NCBI GenBank assembly: GCA_020746875.1
Contig: JAGTJL010000028.1
Location: 372,001 to 436,000, forward strand
DNA from: Rhexocercosporidium sp. MPI-PUGE-AT-0058
Lineage: Eukaryota; Ascomycota; Leotiomycetes; Helotiales
DNA: 64,000 bases
Direction of reading: 5' to 3'
The notes beneath the pieces were generated by a model, which had not been told where the DNA came from, searched no databases, and saw nothing but the letters and a program-made list of their open reading frames with translations. The position numbers and the translations under genes are program-made. Shown here piece after piece: positions 33,285 to 46,534 of this stretch. Each line of letters begins with the position of its first letter. The stretch's first letter is position 1.

Positions 33285-34165
33285 GTTGAAGTCAACCTTT
33301 CAAGAAACGAGGAGGGATGGAAGAAACTGGCCAAAACTGGGAAAGAGAGATCCAGACCCCTCTCTATGTACTCTGTCCCATGCAACCTCCATGCTTTGAC
33401 AGGCTCCAGAAACAGGACTACGGAAGTAGAAGCCCTCTCACAAGCGAATCACGGCCTCGTACACAGCAAGATCAGCCGGGGCCTCGTGCAACCAGATAAC
33501 GATATCTGTGTATCGTGCTTACAGAGCGAGGGTTCACCACGCAAAAGAGATAACGGATACACAACTAAACTTTATCAGGCAGGTCAAAATTCTTCTGACG
33601 GCGAATTGCGTTGAGCTAGAGTCGCAAGTGGACCGAATGGTGGGGAACTGTAACGGAGTGGCCGCCCAGAAACGCCCCCCTGATAGCGGCGGGCGCTGGT
33701 CGCCAATGGATGTCAAATTTGGGAAGCGTGGCGTTTTCAAGCTTCCTTGGTAGTTGAGCTCTAATTCCTCGATCTTCGTTCCATATTCGGTTGGTAAGCT
33801 TGCTGCTCTTGCTCAGGTGCTAATCACCCTCGGCTCAAGCTCGGCTCAGCCAGCTTACCTGAGCTGTCCGAGCAACCCGAGCAGTCCCTGAGCAGTCACT
33901 TAAGTAGCTACTAAGCAGCTCTTCAGTTTTCTGGCCGGCTAGCAGAGTTCGTATGGGCCCAAATTTTTTTTTTTTGGGCAAACAGCCCAGTTTCCAAAAT
34001 AGCCCAGTTTTCAAAATAGAAACCCTCTTAGGGTGACACGTTGGACGATGGGCTACCCCCTGGATGAGCAGTACACAAGGATTGGTACGAATCTCCCTGT
34101 CAGTCCTAGGATCTGAGTTTGAGCACACGCTTCTAAATTCCAGAGGTTTGTTAGGCAAGAGTGAA
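33285..34165. other. Permease upstream region and GC-rich repeat remnant
   Basis: The first 450 bp are the presumed permease promoter. From about 33810 the sequence is rich in GAGC/GCTC words (GCTCGGCTCAGCC and the like). It is followed by a T run at 33964-33977 and a short duplicated AGCCCAGTTT/CCAAAATAG pattern near 33985-34015. A similar GCTCAGG-rich patch occurs at 49060-49190. It looks like a transposon-related remnant; the class is unknown. Confidence 0.4.
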
Positions 34166-34760
34166 GTTTATATATTATCGCCCTGTAAATAATAAGTATA
34201 AGATTATTAAGATACGACTTTTATAAAAAAGATATAAAATATCTTATAAAAATATTATAGATCTTTAGTTTTAGCTTATTTTATTAATAAATAATACAAA
34301 TATTAATTATCAAAAGTAGTGAGTTTTGGTGTAAAAAGGGTAACGGAATAGGGGGGGCGAAATGGAGGGGTGGGATGTTAGCCCGTACTGTTGCCATCTC
34401 GTGCATTTGTTGCTCTGCGCCGCGCCGCGCTGGAGCGGGTTTTGGTTAGTGCTTGCGGCCTCGAAAGCCATAAGACACGTCCTCGACCCCCCTTCCAAGT
34501 CCCACCCCATGCTATCTCATCGTCCCAATCCCAAAGGAATCTCTGCTGCCACTTAGATATAGATATAAGAAGATTAAGAAATTATGTAATAAAGAAAGTA
34601 GTAACTAATTCCTTATTCGCGAGTAATATTAAACTAAGAGTCTTAAACATATCTCGTATTCTAGTCTAGTATTAGCTATGATATCTTATACCTTAGTATC
34701 AAAGCATCGATTAATAGTATTAGCTCAATTTATTAGAGTAATATTTATTTTAAAGTTCCC
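34166..34760. repeat. AT-rich island with GC-rich core
   Basis: 34166-34320 and 34555-34760 are very A/T-rich (runs of TATAAAA, TTATTAATAAAT). They enclose a G/C-rich block at about 34340-34550. Such AT islands in ascomycetes often come from repeat-induced point mutation of transposons. I infer this from composition only; no coding remnant is visible. Confidence 0.45.
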
Positions 34761-35780
34761 CCTGCTCGCTGGCGCTCTCACCTTGGGCAGCCAAGGAGGA
34801 ATCTAGAGATGTCGACTTCTCGAGCCTAGCACGGCCCAACAGCCAGCAGCTAGACGCAATGGTACACACATGCTGTGTAGAGGGCTAGGAAGTATGAACG
34901 ATCTCGCTTTCCAGCGCAGATTCTGCGAAAGCTGAGGGGGCAGCATAAGGATGCTTCAATTACGTTCATGACTTGGGAGGATATGAAGGGGAAAGTTCGC
35001 GGGTAGCAAGGTATTTTCTGACTATGTGGAAGTGATCAGAGAGGTTTTGCTGATACTTTGTAGTTGCGAAGATTGCTAAAAACACATGGAGGGCGAAGTC
35101 GAGAAGACAGCCGAGGAGAAGTAATGAGTGGATAATAGGCAAGATTTCTTCCAACACCACCCTGAATGAGGTCCGGAGCTAACTTCTCTAGCTACGGCTG
35201 TGAGAAAGTAACCTGGACGCGGTAAAGCTGTTGCGATAGGATGGAGTATAATTGAGTCCTCCGTACGGTATCTATGTAGGAGTTTCTCGGACACTATGGC
35301 CAGTTGATTTCAACTCACTGGGCTTGTCTAGATAGGTTGTTGATCGTTCTCCCTTTTTGCGTAGCGATGGGGATGCTTGTCTGGCAATTGAGAAATTGTA
35401 GGAAAGAACACAGCTCTGGCTGCTGGCTTTAATGAATGACTTGACACTGGTCAGATCCCATGATCGTATAGTGACTGTGTCGTTCCGTCGATTTTGTCTC
35501 TCGTAGACTTGCGAGTGAGTTTGTCCAGGATCCTCACTTTGCCACTATAACGACCGAACGAGCAAGATTGCGTTTTGAGCAAATTACATTCTCATCATAG
35601 ACGTCGTTAGACTTCAAAAACGCTCTCCGTAAGCCCACATTTCTTTCACAAGTTTGCATCGCAACCAAGCATAAGGTCAAAGTGATGTTCCCCCTTTACA
35701 ACGAGGTAAAAATAACCGCTCCAACGCCATCGCATTTGAAATACAGTAAAAATATCATGCATAATTATTCAAGCCTCTTG
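34761..35780. other. Intergenic spacer 3' of kinase
   Basis: About 1 kb downstream of the minus-strand kinase. No supported gene and no recognised repeat. Confidence 0.35.
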
Positions 35781-37374
35781 TTACAATAATTTTCGCTCAT
35801 AGGTAGACCGCGCGTATGTGGACTTCGGACTTGGGTGCGATGATGACTGACTGAAAATCGAAGGAATTTTCTTAGGAGAAGCGTCCAGGTTGACCCGATA
35901 TGACGAGTCTGTTTTGACACGATCGAGTATCGCTTGAAGCTGCTTGTGTAGCTCTACAGCGTGGATGCGGTCCTCGTAGTGAATCTTCAATAGGTTCTCG
36001 TCGACAATGTCAACGATTGCCGACATGGGGGTGCGGCGACATCGCTCATCAGCTCGCAGACCATCCATCGCCTCAATGACTTTTGGATGTACCTCCCACT
36101 TTTCCCATTCTTCCGAAATTTGGCGGTCGTGGGACCACTTGAGGCGGTAATATTGGTACTCGTTGGGGTCGAGAGAGCCAGTAAAGTTTGTGATTGCTGT
36201 GAAGTCGTATAAGAGCCACACGATGAACTCGAGTATGATGCAGCCCATCGACCAACAATCGTATCGACGCGACCTTGCCAACTCATTCGTAGCCTCCGGG
36301 GCCTCGTATGCTCGAGTCGATACCGACGTAATCGTCTTGCCTCTGGCGAAGCCAGTTTTCTGGGTGTGTGTTCGTGCGATGCCGAAATCCGCAATCTTCA
36401 AGATGCGGGTGCCATTTTGGGTAAAGTAGAGGATATTCGCAGGCTTGAGGTCTCCATGACGACAATTGATCTCGTGGAGAAGCTCCAGGGCGTGCGCCAG
36501 GCCGACCATTTGTTCGAGAGACCACAAGAAGTCATCTGGTCTTTTTAAAAAATCGCGTTTCCAGAATTGTGCCAGATCCCCGCCGTCTGCCCAGGGGAAT
36601 ATGATGCATGGAACTAGATCGCAGATAGCCAGATGCTTCACGAGATGGTCGTACTGTATGTTCTTGGAGCGAATCGTGTCCAGGATGTTCTTCTCCCGGT
36701 CAAAGTCGGATACCCGGGTAAATTTCTTGATGGCTACATACATTGGCTTCCCCGAGTGTGCCTTTAAGTTGTCGTTAGTTGACCGAAATGGGCGATGGAA
36801 GTTGATGTCAACGTACACTGATAGCGCCTTTGAAGACGGTGCTAAATTCGGTTTTAGCAAGCTCCTCGCAAGAAGCAAACGCTGGTTTGAGTGCGCAATG
36901 CTTATTGAGTGGAATGTTTGTCACTGTCCCGGCATCGTGATCGAGCTCCATGGTTGGCTTTAGGACCCTCCACTGCTTCTTGAGAAACGCGCCAACATCT
37001 CGTGGTGTGCAAGTCGCAAATGACCTAAAGACCTTAATACGGGAGGCAGACTGGATATCGCGACCATTTTGAGAAAGGGGAAGATCTCCATCTGTGAGGT
37101 CTTCTGCCAGTAGACTCTCGATGATTTTTTCTAGGCGTGTCAGTATGCAGATGGCGATGACTTTCTTTGCCTGTTGAATTCTGTTCTCGGCATTGCAATC
37201 CCAGGATGGAATCCATTGGTTCACGCGTGCCTCAGTCAGCAATTCCTTCACTGCTGGCAACGTAATCTTTTTCTCGAAGGATTCCAAGTTCCCGATGTAC
37301 TTCTTGCCAGTAAAGGGACATGTCACATTCGGGCCAAGCTCGCCAGGCAGAGATGTCATCGTGGGCTTCCGCAA
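35781..37374 (-). CDS. Ser/Thr protein kinase with conserved N-terminal region (partner-like paralogue)
   Basis: Two exons, 37374-36817 and 36761-35781, give 512 residues. The intron is 55 nt with a branch site CTAAC and joins STVFKGAIS to AHSGKPMYVAIKKF. Residues about 1-175 are an uncharacterised region ending in a conserved block. The kinase domain follows (about 178-440) with the lysine in VAIKK, catalytic loop RHGDLKPANIL, intact DFG (ADFGIAR) and a YEAPEA version of APE, so it should be catalytically competent. The glycine loop is degenerate (EFSTVFKG). The same N-terminal layout and the RHGDLKP/WLLY motifs recur in the kinase at 41629, so the two are paralogues. The C-terminal 60 residues are Ser-rich. 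Pathway unknown; by neighbourhood it may take part in a HET-type recognition response (inference). Confidence 0.82.
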
Positions 37375-41628: not shown

Positions 41629-43823
41629 ATGCCATCAGAAGCCAAGATAGATATGTCTGCGGACACGCTTAAGGGCGTGCTCACCAACATCAGGGCGGTG
41701 ACGGTGTCGAAAAAGAAGAATAATAAGAAGTTTATTCCAGAGACTCTCTTGGCGAAAGTTATGAATCCCACGGCTGTGAAGGGAGTTCTTGAGGAGCAGA
41801 GGAAAAAATTAGACCTCAAGTCCACCGTTACTATCGACAAATTGGCCAACTTCTTTAGCAAAGAAGCGTTCAAGATATTTGCAATCCTCGCAACCAATAA
41901 TCTCTTCGGCTTGGCCGAGCACTTTTGGCAGCATGACTTCCAGAACGACTTGCTTCCAGTCAGAAAGAGGTGGTTGAATGATAATGATGATGATGATTGG
42001 GAAATCGAGTCATGCATAGATGGAGACCAAATTGTCGCTGAAATCCGCGAGCAAATCCAAGCCAAAGTCCACCAGGTTTTCTCTTGGGGCGACAACAGTC
42101 CATGGGGCGAAACGGATAACTTGGTCAGACAATTCTGCGACTTTTGGCAATGGGAGTTCGTCCCTCCAGTTTTCGTCGAAGACAGATTTCGGTATGAGTT
42201 TCCAGATGAAATCCACTTACCCTTTACACGTATTGGAGAACAGAAGCAGCCGAAATCGGACACCTTTTATAGCTACGTGCAGGAGATGAGTATCCATGCA
42301 GATCACCTTCCAAAGGCTCTTGTAAGACACCTCAAACTTCTTGTGAACTGAAAGTAAGGTTTCTATATTCACTGACCTATTGGTAGGAAACTGCTATGGA
42401 TGATCAGAACAATCATCGTGTTGCTATTAAGCAGCTGAAGCAGTCGGGCCCAAACTTCAAGAAGGTGGCCGCAGACGAAGCCAGCGTTCTCGAGATAATG
42501 CGAGAGCTCGGAGAGGAACACCACTTAATCAAAGCCATCGCGTACTACCAGAAAGGAGAGGACCTCCACTATTTCATATTTCCCTGGGCGGAACTAGGAA
42601 ATCTTTGGGAATTTTGGACTTCGAGAAATAAAAGCCCCGAGACAGACCCAGACTATATGATCTGGGCATTGACGCAGCTCACAGGCTTGGCTAGCGCCCT
42701 TGAAGCGCTGCACCATATGGCTACTGATACTGACGTCAACTGCCGTCACGGCGACCTAAAACCCCTCAACATTCTCTGTTTCAAGACAGAAGATGGTGGT
42801 AACCACAATCCGAGACTGGTTATCACCGACGTCGGCCTCGCCAGAGTTCATAACGAGGCGACCCGCGAGCGTGGTAAAACTACAACTGCGGCCTGGACTA
42901 TCAGGTACGCAGCGCCAGAGCTCGTAGTTGACTCTAACACGACTCGATCCCGACGATTCGACATTTGGTCCTTTGGATGTATTCTACTAGAATGCGTCGT
43001 TTGGCTCTTATATGGCTCCAAGAAGCTGTTGGAATTTGCTCACGATCCCGAGGAACCGTTTTACGAACTTTTACCTCCAGCACCCGGCTTTCAGACGAGA
43101 GACCTATCAGCTCGACATCTGGAAGTCGAGATCAAGGAGAAGAAGACTCTTCAGGTTCATAGTAGAGTTCAATATTGGATCACCTACATCAAGAAGCACG
43201 ATTGGCGCTATTCTAAAGGGACAGCACTTCAAAAGTTGGTTGACCTGATCGTCGATAGGATGTTGAAAGTGGATCTTGGTCCTTTGGGCCCTGCTGACAG
43301 AGACAACTCTATTCCATCCACCAGAAATCCCCCCTCATCCCCTAATACACCAGGCCAAATAGTAACAGAAACTATGACGAAAGAGCCGATTCCAGCTTCC
43401 CAGAAGTCTATCCCAGTTATAACGAAAACCCTCGTCGGTGAGCAAGACTCAACTTTACAACTACCTCCCCCAAGTATCAAACGTCTTAGAAAGGCTAGAA
43501 CCTGGGGCCGAAAAGGAAAAGCTACGAATCATCTGTCTCGCGATCCACAGTATCGTGCCTATGCTCCAGAAGTAAAGGAGAAGTTGGAGGCTATTCTTGA
43601 GGAATTGGAAAATGGGAATATCGAGGCGTTTGGAAGTAAGCCCTCAAATGAAACAGCAGCGGCCCCGGGACCTTCACCGGCACCCATCGTTGGAAACGCT
43701 GGTGGTCTCGGAATTCCTGGCGAACCTGACCGCACCTGGGTATGTGAACCTTCTTTAGACTACGATATCACTTCATTTTCTAATTCTGTCTTAGCAAAAT
43801 GTGAGCCTCTAATTAGACTTTGA
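41629..43823 (+). CDS. Protein kinase module of a probable kinase-HET fusion gene
   Basis: Exons 41629-42321 and 42387-43739 encode 682 residues. If the next intron is retained, translation ends at 43823. Residues about 1-225 are a helical, uncharacterised N-terminal region similar in layout to that of the kinase at 35781-37374. The kinase domain follows: VAIKQLKQ (ATP lysine, on exon 2), catalytic loop RHGDLKPLNIL, then DVG instead of DFG (ITDVGLARV) and YAAPE. Asp-Val-Gly keeps the metal-binding aspartate, so activity is possible but atypical. A WSFGCILLECVVWLLYG segment closes the core. A Pro/Ser-rich linker ends at EPDRTW, where a strong donor (GTATGT, 43740) begins the microexon chain into the HET module. 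The start is taken at the first in-frame ATG; an earlier exon is possible. Confidence 0.8.
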
Positions 43824-44248
43824 TCAATTCACTGTCGTCGCTAACGAACTTGTCCCTTGAAAAGGAAGTAAGCTCATAGGATACTGTGGTTTGCTTGATA
43901 CTAATACTCATCCTCCTTCTCTCTAGTACGTAAGTAACACCAGGTCATGCAATCGAATTAATTAGGAAGTTTAAAAGGCTAATTTTTGATTTTCGCCCTA
44001 TTTTGGCTGAGCAGAGAGTAAGTCCCTTCACGCTAATAATAACTGTGATTCCCATTTGGCCAACATATTTACTAAACGGCCGCCTATTCCTAGTTTGTGA
44101 GTATTTCAGTGACGGCACTCATTTGAGCTCTGTGACTAATTTACCTTCCAACAGACTGTACGTCGATTATCAAGTCCTGTTTTATCAATTTTGAAGTAGC
44201 GAGCTACTTATTTCATGGAAATGCCATCGCTGACCATTCTTTTTACAG
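43740..44248 (+). other. Chain of seven introns separated by 6- and 3-nt microexons
   Basis: Read as introns 43740-43794, 43801-43864, 43868-43926, 43930-44014, 44018-44093, 44097-44154 and 44158-44248 (55, 64, 59, 85, 76, 58 and 91 nt). The microexons between them are CAAAAT, GAA, TAC, AGA, TTT and ACT. Every intron begins GTATGT, GTGAGY, GTAAGY or GTACGT, contains a CTAAT/CTAAC/CTGAC-type branch site and ends in AG. All are phase 0. The product joins the kinase linker (...RTW) through Q-N-E-Y-R-F-T to the HET exon (PVRYLPSPFHRR...). Any subset of microexons can be skipped without changing frame. This is a reading by eye, not supported by transcripts. Confidence 0.55.
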
Positions 44249-46345
44249 CCTGTTAGATACCTCCCTTCTCCTTTCCACAGGCGCAAGCTAAAGTACCTCC
44301 AGCTAACCGATAACTGGGATTATGCCCCTGATGACACTATTGCTAGAAAAGTTCTTACCGGCCTTTACTCAAAGACAATATTACCCTTATTCCGCGAATC
44401 TTCTAAACTTTGTCACCGCTGCATTAGTTTGAGATTATGGTCTCTTAATTGTACTTTTGTGGACTCGCTCGCGGGACTAGAAGAGAAGGCCAACACAGAG
44501 GGATGTGAACTATGCAGCTTGCTTTTACAAGGCCTTCAGGTTCGGATAAAAAGACATTCCGACTTCGTCCGCTTCGCCAGAATTGGTTCATACTTAACCA
44601 TTGATGATGGTCAAGGCCAAGCTTTCGCCAACCTCTACAAAATGCCAGGTGTGTGCAGAGCTTAATAAGGCTTAATTTGTCTTTGCCACTGCTCACAATC
44701 CAACAGGTTTTCAAAATGATGATTTGCAGAGTATTCAGCTGGGGCTTTCCAGACTGCCTAGTGCCGGCAGCGAGACGCATTACAAGATCCTGAGAGAATG
44801 GATTCGCTCTTGCGACAGAACCGATCAATGCTACCCGAAACATCTTGACTTTCTCCCCACACGGCTTCTGGACGTCAGCAGTAGTGACTCCAAAACCATC
44901 AGGCTCCTGGACATAGGGCGAGGCAACACTGTGCCGAGAAGATACATTGCTCTATCCCACCGTTGGGGTTCGCCAGAACATAACACCAAGTTCTGCACTT
45001 ACAAGTCCAACATCGAGGATTTTAAACTAGGCATTAATATAAGCCGGCTCCCAAAGACCTTCCAGGATGCCGTCAACGTCACCCGTGGTCTGGGTCTGGG
45101 ATACCTTTGGATAGACTCGTTGTGTATTGTCCAGGACGACGAAAACGACTGGGAGGCAGAGGCCAAACTTATGGGGCGCGTCTTTAGTTCAGCATACTGC
45201 ACTATTGCAGCCAGCTGTGCCAGCGGGAGCAGCGACGGGTTCCTCAAGCCAAGGCAGGGGAGAAGAACTGTCGTAATGCAGGGGCCCCAAGGAGACGAGA
45301 TCTTTTGCGTATGTGAGGCTATCGACGACTTCTACCGAGATGTCGACCAGGGTGAGCTAAATCAGAGGGGCTGGGTCCTGCAGGAGCGAGCACTGTCACG
45401 ACGGACAATCTACTTCACGGAGACCCAGTCGTACTGGGAATGCGGAGGAGGCGTGCGGTGCGAGACAATGACAAAGATGAAAAAGTACGTTATTACCTTC
45501 TCTCTCCTTCTGGGGACGAACTGTAATACCCAGGCTCCTGCCTCTATCTATAAGAACCAACCTATTCTATTCGCTTTGAGACTCAGTGCTAACCTATCTC
45601 CCTACCCAAAAGCCGCAAAGCATCGTTCCTTGGCGACTCCAACTTCCCCAATTCTGCCGAGAAATATGTCAAAGGGATGCGAATCGAGCTCTTCCAAGAC
45701 CTCTATGAGCGCTACTCTCGATTAAACCTCTCATTCCCTTCAGACCGCCCCATCGCGATCAAAGGCCTTGAGTCCCGACTTATCGACACCTTCGGCACTA
45801 CCGGTGGCTATGGTGTCTTTGACAAATACCTACACCGTTGTCTGCTTTGGCAACGAGCTGGCAAAGCACTGAAGCACATCGAAGCCTTCCGTGGTGGTAA
45901 ATTAGTGCCGTCTTGGTCGTGGATGGCATACGATGGTCCTATTCGCTATACCACCGTTCCTTTTGGCGAAGCTTCGTGGAATGGGGATATTACGTCACCT
46001 TTCACTAAGACTGGGCAGGCTCTGAGAGGAAGCGAACATGAAGGTGACGGTATTTCCACATCGATGCTTGAGTTAGAAACGCCAGTCTGGGATATCTTTG
46101 ATACAAAAGACGGACAGATCATTCTGGACAACCCGTCTCGTACCATTGATCAAGCTCTGCAGTGCGTCGTTGTTGGAAATGACAAGACAACGAACATAAA
46201 TGGGCGGCAGGCGTATTATGTTTTGTTGGTTCTCTTCATTACAAACATCAATGAAAATCATGTGTATGAGAGGGTTGGAGTAGGTGTCTTGGATCGGCGC
46301 CACATTGCTCTTGATGGTAAACAAAGAATGGCTAAGATTCGATAG
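44249..46345 (+). CDS. HET-domain module (heterokaryon incompatibility), probably C-terminal half of kinase-HET fusion
   Basis: Exons 44249-44648, 44707-45484 and 45613-46345 encode 636 residues and a stop. A Cys-containing lead (KLCHRCISLR, CELCSLLLQG) precedes the HET domain (about residues 230-380 of the module). The three HET blocks are clear: RYIALSHRWG, then GLGYLWIDSLCIVQDDENDW with YCTIAASCASGSSDGFL, then RGWVLQERALSRRTIYF. HET proteins trigger programmed cell death after non-self recognition in filamentous ascomycetes. The first exon has no in-frame ATG near its start, so upstream coding sequence is required; the kinase module upstream is in frame through the microexon chain. If it is a separate gene, its start codon is not visible. 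The downstream RLIDTFGTTGGYGVFDKYLHR-type region is common after HET domains. Confidence 0.85.
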
Positions 46346-46534
46346 TCCGATCACCTAGAAAGGAGACTCTTGTCTTCGAGAGACTTGGCATAATTAGACT
46401 TGAAAAGACGATAGGACTTTCAACTACAACTTGTAAAAGTTCCAACGAAGTTTTGAAACTAAAATCCAAGATCCCATCTTTATATTCGCGTTTTATTCCG
46501 ATTTATTTGTTGTTACTCCACCAACTAGAAGTAT

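What the first reader, a model, noticed from the sequence alone, without database searches (positions are those of the whole stretch)
43740..44248. Chain of six in-frame microexons (6,3,3,3,3,3 nt) between seven phase-0 introns
Seven consecutive segments of 55-91 nt each have a consensus donor, a CTAAC-like branch site and an AG acceptor. They leave exons of only 6 or 3 nt. All are phase 0, so the kinase and HET frames join without a stop and any microexon can be skipped freely. Serial single-codon exons would challenge exon-definition limits. They could have arisen by repeated intron insertion (introner-like) or serve as a splicing switch that decides whether the HET effector is attached to the kinase.
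Basis: partly seen in the sequence, partly recalled or inferred. Interest (0 to 1): 0.88.

Follow-up and report, generated by a model that had tools for sequence, protein, structure and literature searches.

The report
Ladder of seven one-to-two-codon exons
A predicted fungal gene joining a protein kinase to a HET domain carries eight short intron-like segments in a row that leave seven stretches of only one or two codons, spelling the same eight amino acids that stand unbroken in a related fungus's deposited protein, so this fungus is predicted to splice single-codon exons one after another.

Summary
Between the kinase exon (ends 43739) and the exon before HET (starts 44303), eight introns (55, 64, 59, 85, 76, 58, 91, 51 nt) leave seven phase-0 microexons: CAAAAT, GAA, TAC, AGA, TTT, ACT, CCT. 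They spell QN-E-Y-R-F-T-P. A deposited homologue (Bimuria novae-zelandiae, P0030) reads QNEYRFTP at the same place; three more carry EEYRFEP, EEYRYTP and DEYKYTP. Only two chain parses fit the consensus; one gives exactly QNEYRFTP. Controls did not reproduce it: 0 of 20,000 Markov-resampled regions, 0 of 200,000 random octamers; the longest chain elsewhere was two introns. The introns are mutually unrelated and no second copy was found, so introner expansion is not supported. No RNA was available: splicing, its order and any regulation are inferred, and intron positions in relatives could not be read. Retaining any one of seven of the eight introns would bring a stop before HET; skipping microexons keeps frame. 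My paper searches showed no comparable run of single-codon exons.

The parts
41629..42321 (+). Exon 1 (N-terminal part; start codon assumed to be the ATG at 41629)
   Evidence: Open frame that joins in frame to the kinase exon; no Pfam match in its open frame
42387..43739 (+). Exon 2, protein kinase domain and kinase tail, ending ...PDRTW
   Evidence: PF00069 E 2.3e-22
43740..43794 (+). Ladder intron 1 (55 nt, GTATGT...TAG)
   Evidence: CTAAT, branch A 11 nt before the end
43795..43800 (+). Microexon 1, CAAAAT = QN
   Evidence: QN also in P0030
43801..43864 (+). Ladder intron 2 (64 nt, GTGAGC...AAG)
   Evidence: CTAAC, 20 nt before the end
43865..43867 (+). Microexon 2, GAA = E
   Evidence: E in all four motif-bearing homologues
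43868..43926 (+). Ladder intron 3 (59 nt, GTAAGC...TAG)
   Evidence: CTAAT, 22 nt before the end
43927..43929 (+). Microexon 3, TAC = Y
   Evidence: Y in all four motif-bearing homologues
43930..44014 (+). Ladder intron 4 (85 nt, GTAAGT...CAG; an upstream GAG gives a tandem-acceptor alternative that would add Q)
   Evidence: CTAAT, 32 nt before the end; two parses
44015..44017 (+). Microexon 4, AGA = R
   Evidence: R in three, K in one of the four motif-bearing homologues
44018..44093 (+). Ladder intron 5 (76 nt, GTAAGT...TAG)
   Evidence: CTAAA, 18 nt before the end
44094..44096 (+). Microexon 5, TTT = F
   Evidence: F in two, Y in two of the four motif-bearing homologues
44097..44154 (+). 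Ladder intron 6 (58 nt, GTGAGT...CAG)
   Evidence: CTAAT, 15 nt before the end
44155..44157 (+). Microexon 6, ACT = T
   Evidence: T in three of the four motif-bearing homologues, E in P0038
44158..44248 (+). Ladder intron 7 (91 nt, GTACGT...CAG)
   Evidence: CTGAC, 15 nt before the end
44249..44251 (+).
   Evidence: P directly before L in 23 of 83 homologues with a recognised junction, 8.0 expected; 0 of 2,000 permutations reach 23
44252..44302 (+). Ladder intron 8 (51 nt, GTTAGA...CAG); 3n long and stop-free, so retention would add 17 residues in frame
   Evidence: CTAAA, 11 nt before the end; homologues with the motif join P to L; retention reading
44303..44648 (+). Exon LTDNWDYAPDD... with the cysteine motif that precedes the HET domain
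   Evidence: Aligned region in homologues; gene model
44707..45484 (+). HET domain exon
   Evidence: PF06985 E 2.8e-31
45613..46345 (+). C-terminal exon, to the stop codon
   Evidence: In-frame junction and homology

Best explanation
Eight short intron-like segments split a hinge peptide (QNEYRFTP, found whole in relatives) between the kinase and HET parts of one predicted fungal gene into seven exons of one or two codons, and the spliceosome likely removes them one after another by intron definition and would include every codon. Shown here: the splice signals, the phase-0 layout, an almost unique chain parse, and the identity of the spelled peptide with that of a homologue. Inferred: that U1 and the branch-site factors pair across each 51-91-nt intron, so that exon size is not limiting. 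Because a 3-nt exon would hardly hold a 3'-splice-site complex and a U1 complex at once, neighbouring introns would have to go sequentially; each removal fuses the microexon to a neighbour and gives the next donor a normal exon. Also inferred: the product is a normal kinase-HET fusion, probably a fungal nonself-response or cell-death protein, and automatic gene models of relatives would often miss these codons.
For: Chain of 7 consensus introns with 3-6-nt exons here, longest chain 2 elsewhere. Of chains with fixed ends 43740 and 44302, introns of 45-100 nt and exons of 3-12 nt, only two fit the consensus: QNEYRFTP and QNEYQRFTP. P0030 reads QNEYRFTPLDDNWKY at the aligned place; P0046 EEYRYTP, P0038 EEYRFEP and P0129 DEYKYTP agree. 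For QN-E-Y-R-F-T-P a GT-AG parse exists once in the real region, in 0 of 20,000 Markov-resampled regions, and for 0 of 200,000 random octamers. Kinase and HET are in one protein in 118 of 120 listed homologues. P stands directly before L in 23 of 83, 8.0 expected, 0 of 2,000 permutations. Intron definition for exons too small for exon definition is the proposed model for PRP-40 (PMC8378409, passages), and removal one after another is suggested for the 1-nt exon of Arabidopsis (PMC4674806, passages). A 1-nt exon with read support exists in Fusarium (PMC12940212, part 1 of 3 of the text).
Against: No transcript was available. The exon structure of the homologues could not be read at DNA level (searches found no relative), so motif-bearing relatives may encode the peptide without introns. 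Only 4 of 83 homologues with a recognised junction carry the whole motif and 50 of 83 fell in the class 'other'; in some of these the motif may be truly absent. The other junction statistics are weak: E or EP before L in 11, 5.2 expected (33 of 2,000 permutations reach it); E/N followed by V in 6, 2.7 expected (95 of 2,000). The last donor (GTTAGA) is weak and intron 4 has an ambiguous tandem acceptor. The hinge-and-HET-start search found nothing. The AlphaFold model of P0046 puts the hinge in a low-confidence stretch (residues 211-237 below pLDDT 50), so it gives no structural reason for conservation.
Confidence: 0.85

Rival explanations
1. One large intron: 43740-44248 or 43740-44302 is removed as a single unit in most transcripts, and the microexon codons are skipped or relics.
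For: Both single-intron readings use a good donor and a CAG acceptor and stay in phase 0. Many deposited models of relatives go from the kinase tail to (P)LxDxW without the motif. The parse count excludes such long introns by construction.
Against: A 509- or 563-nt intron would be far longer than the gene's other three introns (58, 65 and 128 nt). Eight sets of intron signals and a peptide identical to that of P0030 would be unexplained.
Confidence: 0.07
2. The ladder is a regulated splicing gate: retention of an intron truncates the protein after the kinase and frees it from the HET effector, so spliceosome state sets how much effector is made. (Compatible with the structure in the best explanation; the odds are not exclusive.)
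For: Retaining any single one of introns 1-7 puts a stop before HET; only intron 8 is 3n and open. A microexon switch in one Trichoderma gene (Xlr2) is published (PMC11121469, passages).
Against: Most introns bring stops when retained, so this layout is not specific. There is no isoform evidence here. The hinge codons occur as an included peptide in four homologues.
Confidence: 0.12
3. Introner-like expansion: one mobile intron copied itself repeatedly into this stretch. (A statement on origin; compatible with the best explanation.)
For: Introns at eight of nine neighbouring codon boundaries; introner-like elements are described in fungi (PMC4457414, listing and start of abstract only). One pair, ladder introns 1 and 2, has z 3.3.
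Against: Lengths differ; mean pairwise z is -0.006 over 28 pairs; no internal repeats; no second genomic copy found. Old, diverged copies cannot be excluded.
Confidence: 0.05
4. Two separate genes: the kinase gene ends at a stop beyond 43740 and an independent HET gene starts downstream.
For: The unspliced kinase frame stays open to a stop at 43823. HET-only proteins are listed among relatives, for example P0131 and P0136.
Against: 118 of 120 listed homologues carry both domains in one protein. The residues directly before and after the ladder continue a junction seen in fused homologues.
Confidence: 0.03

Closest known systems
Single-nucleotide exon of CYP621A in Fusarium (PMC12940212; part 1 of 3 of the text seen)
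   Same: Ultra-small exon in filamentous ascomycetes, recognised because a homologue without introns shows what is missing; such exons are often missed by annotation
   Different: One microexon between two introns, with read support; here seven in a row, without RNA so far
Schistosome micro-exon genes (PMC10526429; passages seen)
   Same: Long runs of small exons, mostly multiples of three
   Different: The body text gives exons of 6-81 bp, mostly 15 bp, and introns of 0.1-5 kbp (the abstract says 3-81 bp); here six consecutive 3-nt exons with 51-91-nt introns inside an otherwise ordinary gene
Human RPS24 microexons of 3, 18 and 22 bp (PMC11162997; passages seen)
   Same: Consecutive microexons including one of 3 nt
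   Different: Three microexons, alternatively used, in an animal; here seven of 3-6 nt
Misannotated plant microexons, including an adjacent 5-nt and 12-nt pair in rice (PMC8831610; passages seen)
   Same: Very small exons coding conserved peptide motifs, often missing from annotation
   Different: The passages seen describe singles and an adjacent pair, RNA-validated; here seven, without RNA
Spliceosomal twin introns (stwintrons) of fungi (PMC5639578, PMC12403724; listing and start of abstract seen)
   Same: Adjacent short fungal introns that need consecutive splicing reactions
   Different: In stwintrons one intron interrupts a splice element of another; here coding codons lie between introns that each have their own signals

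Membership tests
Microexon (exon of at most about 30 nt between two introns) | Exon of 3-30 nt with acceptor and donor signals on its two sides | tested here: met
   Signals and lengths
Microexon (exon of at most about 30 nt between two introns) | Inclusion in mature RNA | not testable with these tools
   No RNA; homologous peptide only
Introner-like elements | Sequence-similar introns in many places of the genome | tested here: not met
   No general similarity among the eight, no repeats, one genomic match, itself
Stwintron | Internal intron splits a donor, branch site or acceptor of an external intron | tested here: inconclusive
   Each of the eight has its own donor, branch candidate and acceptor, but nested readings were not searched
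Kinase-HET fusion protein | Protein kinase and HET domains in one protein | tested here: met
   PF00069 and PF06985 in the predicted gene; same architecture in 118 of 120 listed homologues; a joint transcript is not shown

The most novel reading that the evidence does not exclude
The single-codon exon ladder is ancient in the kinase-HET genes of filamentous ascomycetes, is missed by most current gene models, and works as a splicing-fidelity gate: only a cell whose spliceosome completes eight serial reactions without one retention attaches the death effector to the kinase, so agents that disturb splicing change the response.
Probability: 0.12. Interest if true: 0.93.

Novelty: new variant of a known kind. 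Interest (0 to 1): 0.82.

Why it matters
Introns at eight of nine neighbouring codon boundaries, with six single-codon exons in a row, would be an extreme natural test of how a spliceosome handles exons too small for two splice complexes. It would be a compact substrate for asking whether intron definition alone suffices, whether order is fixed, and how faithful serial splicing is. It also suggests that gene models of this fungal family may miss codons, because predictors and read mappers are poor at placing 3-nt exons.

Tried and rejected
Introner-like origin: not supported. Paralogues with the same junction in this genome: none found; the kinase exon has paralogues, one of them a stand-alone kinase in the same window, but the exon before HET (44249-44647) matched only itself. 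L026, a kinase and HET in one open frame, looks like a different family (by reading). DNA of relatives: one scan each of viral contigs and genome contigs gave no confirmed relative, so intron positions in other species could not be compared. A protein search limited to residues 677-780 had 32 candidates and none at E <= 0.001. I first took YRT in Fusarium models (P0010, P0013) for microexon residues; by eye they fit better as the end of the kinase exon (our RTW), so they are not counted. Rfam: no match in 42000-46500. Structure: P0046 with 29 homologues, hinge at low confidence; no fold search was made. Alignment A2 was not used further. Background: 20 loci of about 10 kb, mostly at kinase and HET hits.

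Papers: PMC12940212 part 1 of 3 of the text; PMC11121469, PMC8831610, PMC1184071, PMC8378409, PMC4674806, PMC11162997, PMC10526429 by passages; PMC4457414, PMC5639578, PMC12403724 by listing and start of the abstract. The statement that I found no comparable run of single-codon exons rests on the searches, which cover open-licence PubMed Central papers only.

Full report
What was checked. The stretch 43740-44248 was read directly and parsed. Every intron has a fungal-type donor and a CTRA[ACT] branch candidate whose A lies 11-32 nt before the acceptor end. The gene on either side holds a protein kinase exon (PF00069, E 2.3e-22) and a HET exon (PF06985, E 2.8e-31).

Correction. Homologues show the junction as ...P-L-(D/N)-D-x-W. 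In the window this is CCT (44249-44251), a 51-nt intron 44252-44302 (GTTAGA...CTAAA...CAG), then CTAACCGATAACTGG (LTDNW). So there are seven microexons and eight introns.

Confirmation of the parse by homologues. The microexons spell QN-E-Y-R-F-T-P. The deposited protein of Bimuria novae-zelandiae (P0030, 42% identical over 99% of the searched region) reads ...RRDAQNEYRFTPLDDNWKYAPD at the aligned place. Kalmusia sp. (P0046) has IEEYRYTPLDDKW, Polyplosphaeria fusca (P0038) KEEYRFEPLDDDW and an unnamed assembly protein (P0129) QDEYKYTPLDDRW.

Chance. With a loose consensus the locus gives a chain of 7 introns (the GTTAGA donor was outside that consensus). In 197,620 bases of 20 other loci of the same genome, both strands, and on the window's other strand, the longest chain is 2. 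Between 43740 and 44302, with introns of 45-100 nt and exons of 3-12 nt, only two chain parses exist, giving QNEYRFTP and QNEYQRFTP (a tandem acceptor at intron 4); the donor rule there was widened to admit GTTAGA, and long single introns are excluded by construction. Using only GT-AG and intron length 40-110, the peptide QN-E-Y-R-F-T-P has exactly one parse in the real region, none in 20,000 first-order Markov resamplings with the end dinucleotides kept, and none of 200,000 random octamers can be parsed from the real region.

What homologues say about age. Of 179 homologous proteins listed (two capped lists of 120; 246 and 1,997 passed the threshold), 83 have a recognised junction; 4 carry the full motif, 3 end EP and 7 end E before L, 6 show E or N followed by V and R, S or Y, as if reading into a donor, 13 more keep TP or P, and 50 are other. 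Some of these, such as P0012, P0034 and P0108, may be coincidence. P before L is far above permutation (23, 8.0 expected; 0 of 2,000). E or EP before L is moderately above (11, 5.2 expected; 33 of 2,000). The V signal is weak (6, 2.7 expected; 95 of 2,000). This is what one would expect if gene models of some relatives skip the single codons, but DNA of those relatives was not reached, so age remains open.

How it likely works. Shown: signals, phase, peptide. Inferred: intron definition across each 51-91-nt intron, and sequential removal because a 3-nt exon would hardly hold two complexes. [quoted passage not shown] A 1-nt exon with read support is reported in Fusarium (PMC12940212, part 1 of 3), so ascomycete spliceosomes can place ultra-small exons.

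Consequences of error. If ladder intron 1, 2, 3, 4, 5, 6 or 7 is retained alone, a stop comes after 687-718 residues, before HET; intron 8 is 51 nt, open, and would add 17 residues. Skipping any set of microexons keeps frame, since all are 3n. This makes a gate possible but does not show one.

Origin. The introns show no general similarity to each other (mean z -0.006 over 28 pairs; best pair, introns 1 and 2, z 3.3), contain no shared repeats of 12 or more bases, and no second genomic copy was found. The microexon junctions are not the AG|G sites often named for intron insertion (recalled). Origin is unresolved.

Product. Kinase and HET stand in one protein in 118 of 120 listed homologues (P0046 and P0071 lack the kinase domain call). 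HET proteins are linked to nonself recognition and cell death in fungi (general knowledge; listing). The hinge lies in a stretch of low model confidence in P0046 (residues 211-237 below pLDDT 50), which fits a short linear motif but shows no function.

Novelty. Known relatives are single 1-nt or 3-nt exons, pairs or triples of microexons, and schistosome micro-exon genes with 6-81-bp exons (3-81 in the abstract) and longer introns. In the searches I found no run of single-codon exons like this one, in fungi or elsewhere. I rate it a new variant of a known kind. The confidences given to best explanation and rivals are not exclusive: the gate and the introner origin are compatible with the ladder structure.

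Noticed in passing
36147-36695, minus strand (match; the gene is longer): A stand-alone kinase gene, 47% identical over about 197 residues to the kinase of the fusion; its frame ends without a HET part and no HET hit among the 150 scored lies there. It is some 4-5 kb from the fusion gene.
   Followed up: partly
44009-44017: Tandem acceptor (GAGCAG) before microexon 4; the upstream choice would add one Q in frame.
   Followed up: partly
about 34180-34750: AT-rich low-complexity stretch between genes (GC 0.416 for 34001-35000), perhaps the remains of a decayed repeat.
   Followed up: no
whole genome G000: Very large HET family: 526 first-look candidates, of which 150 were scored and all 150 passed the curated cut-off.
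   Followed up: no
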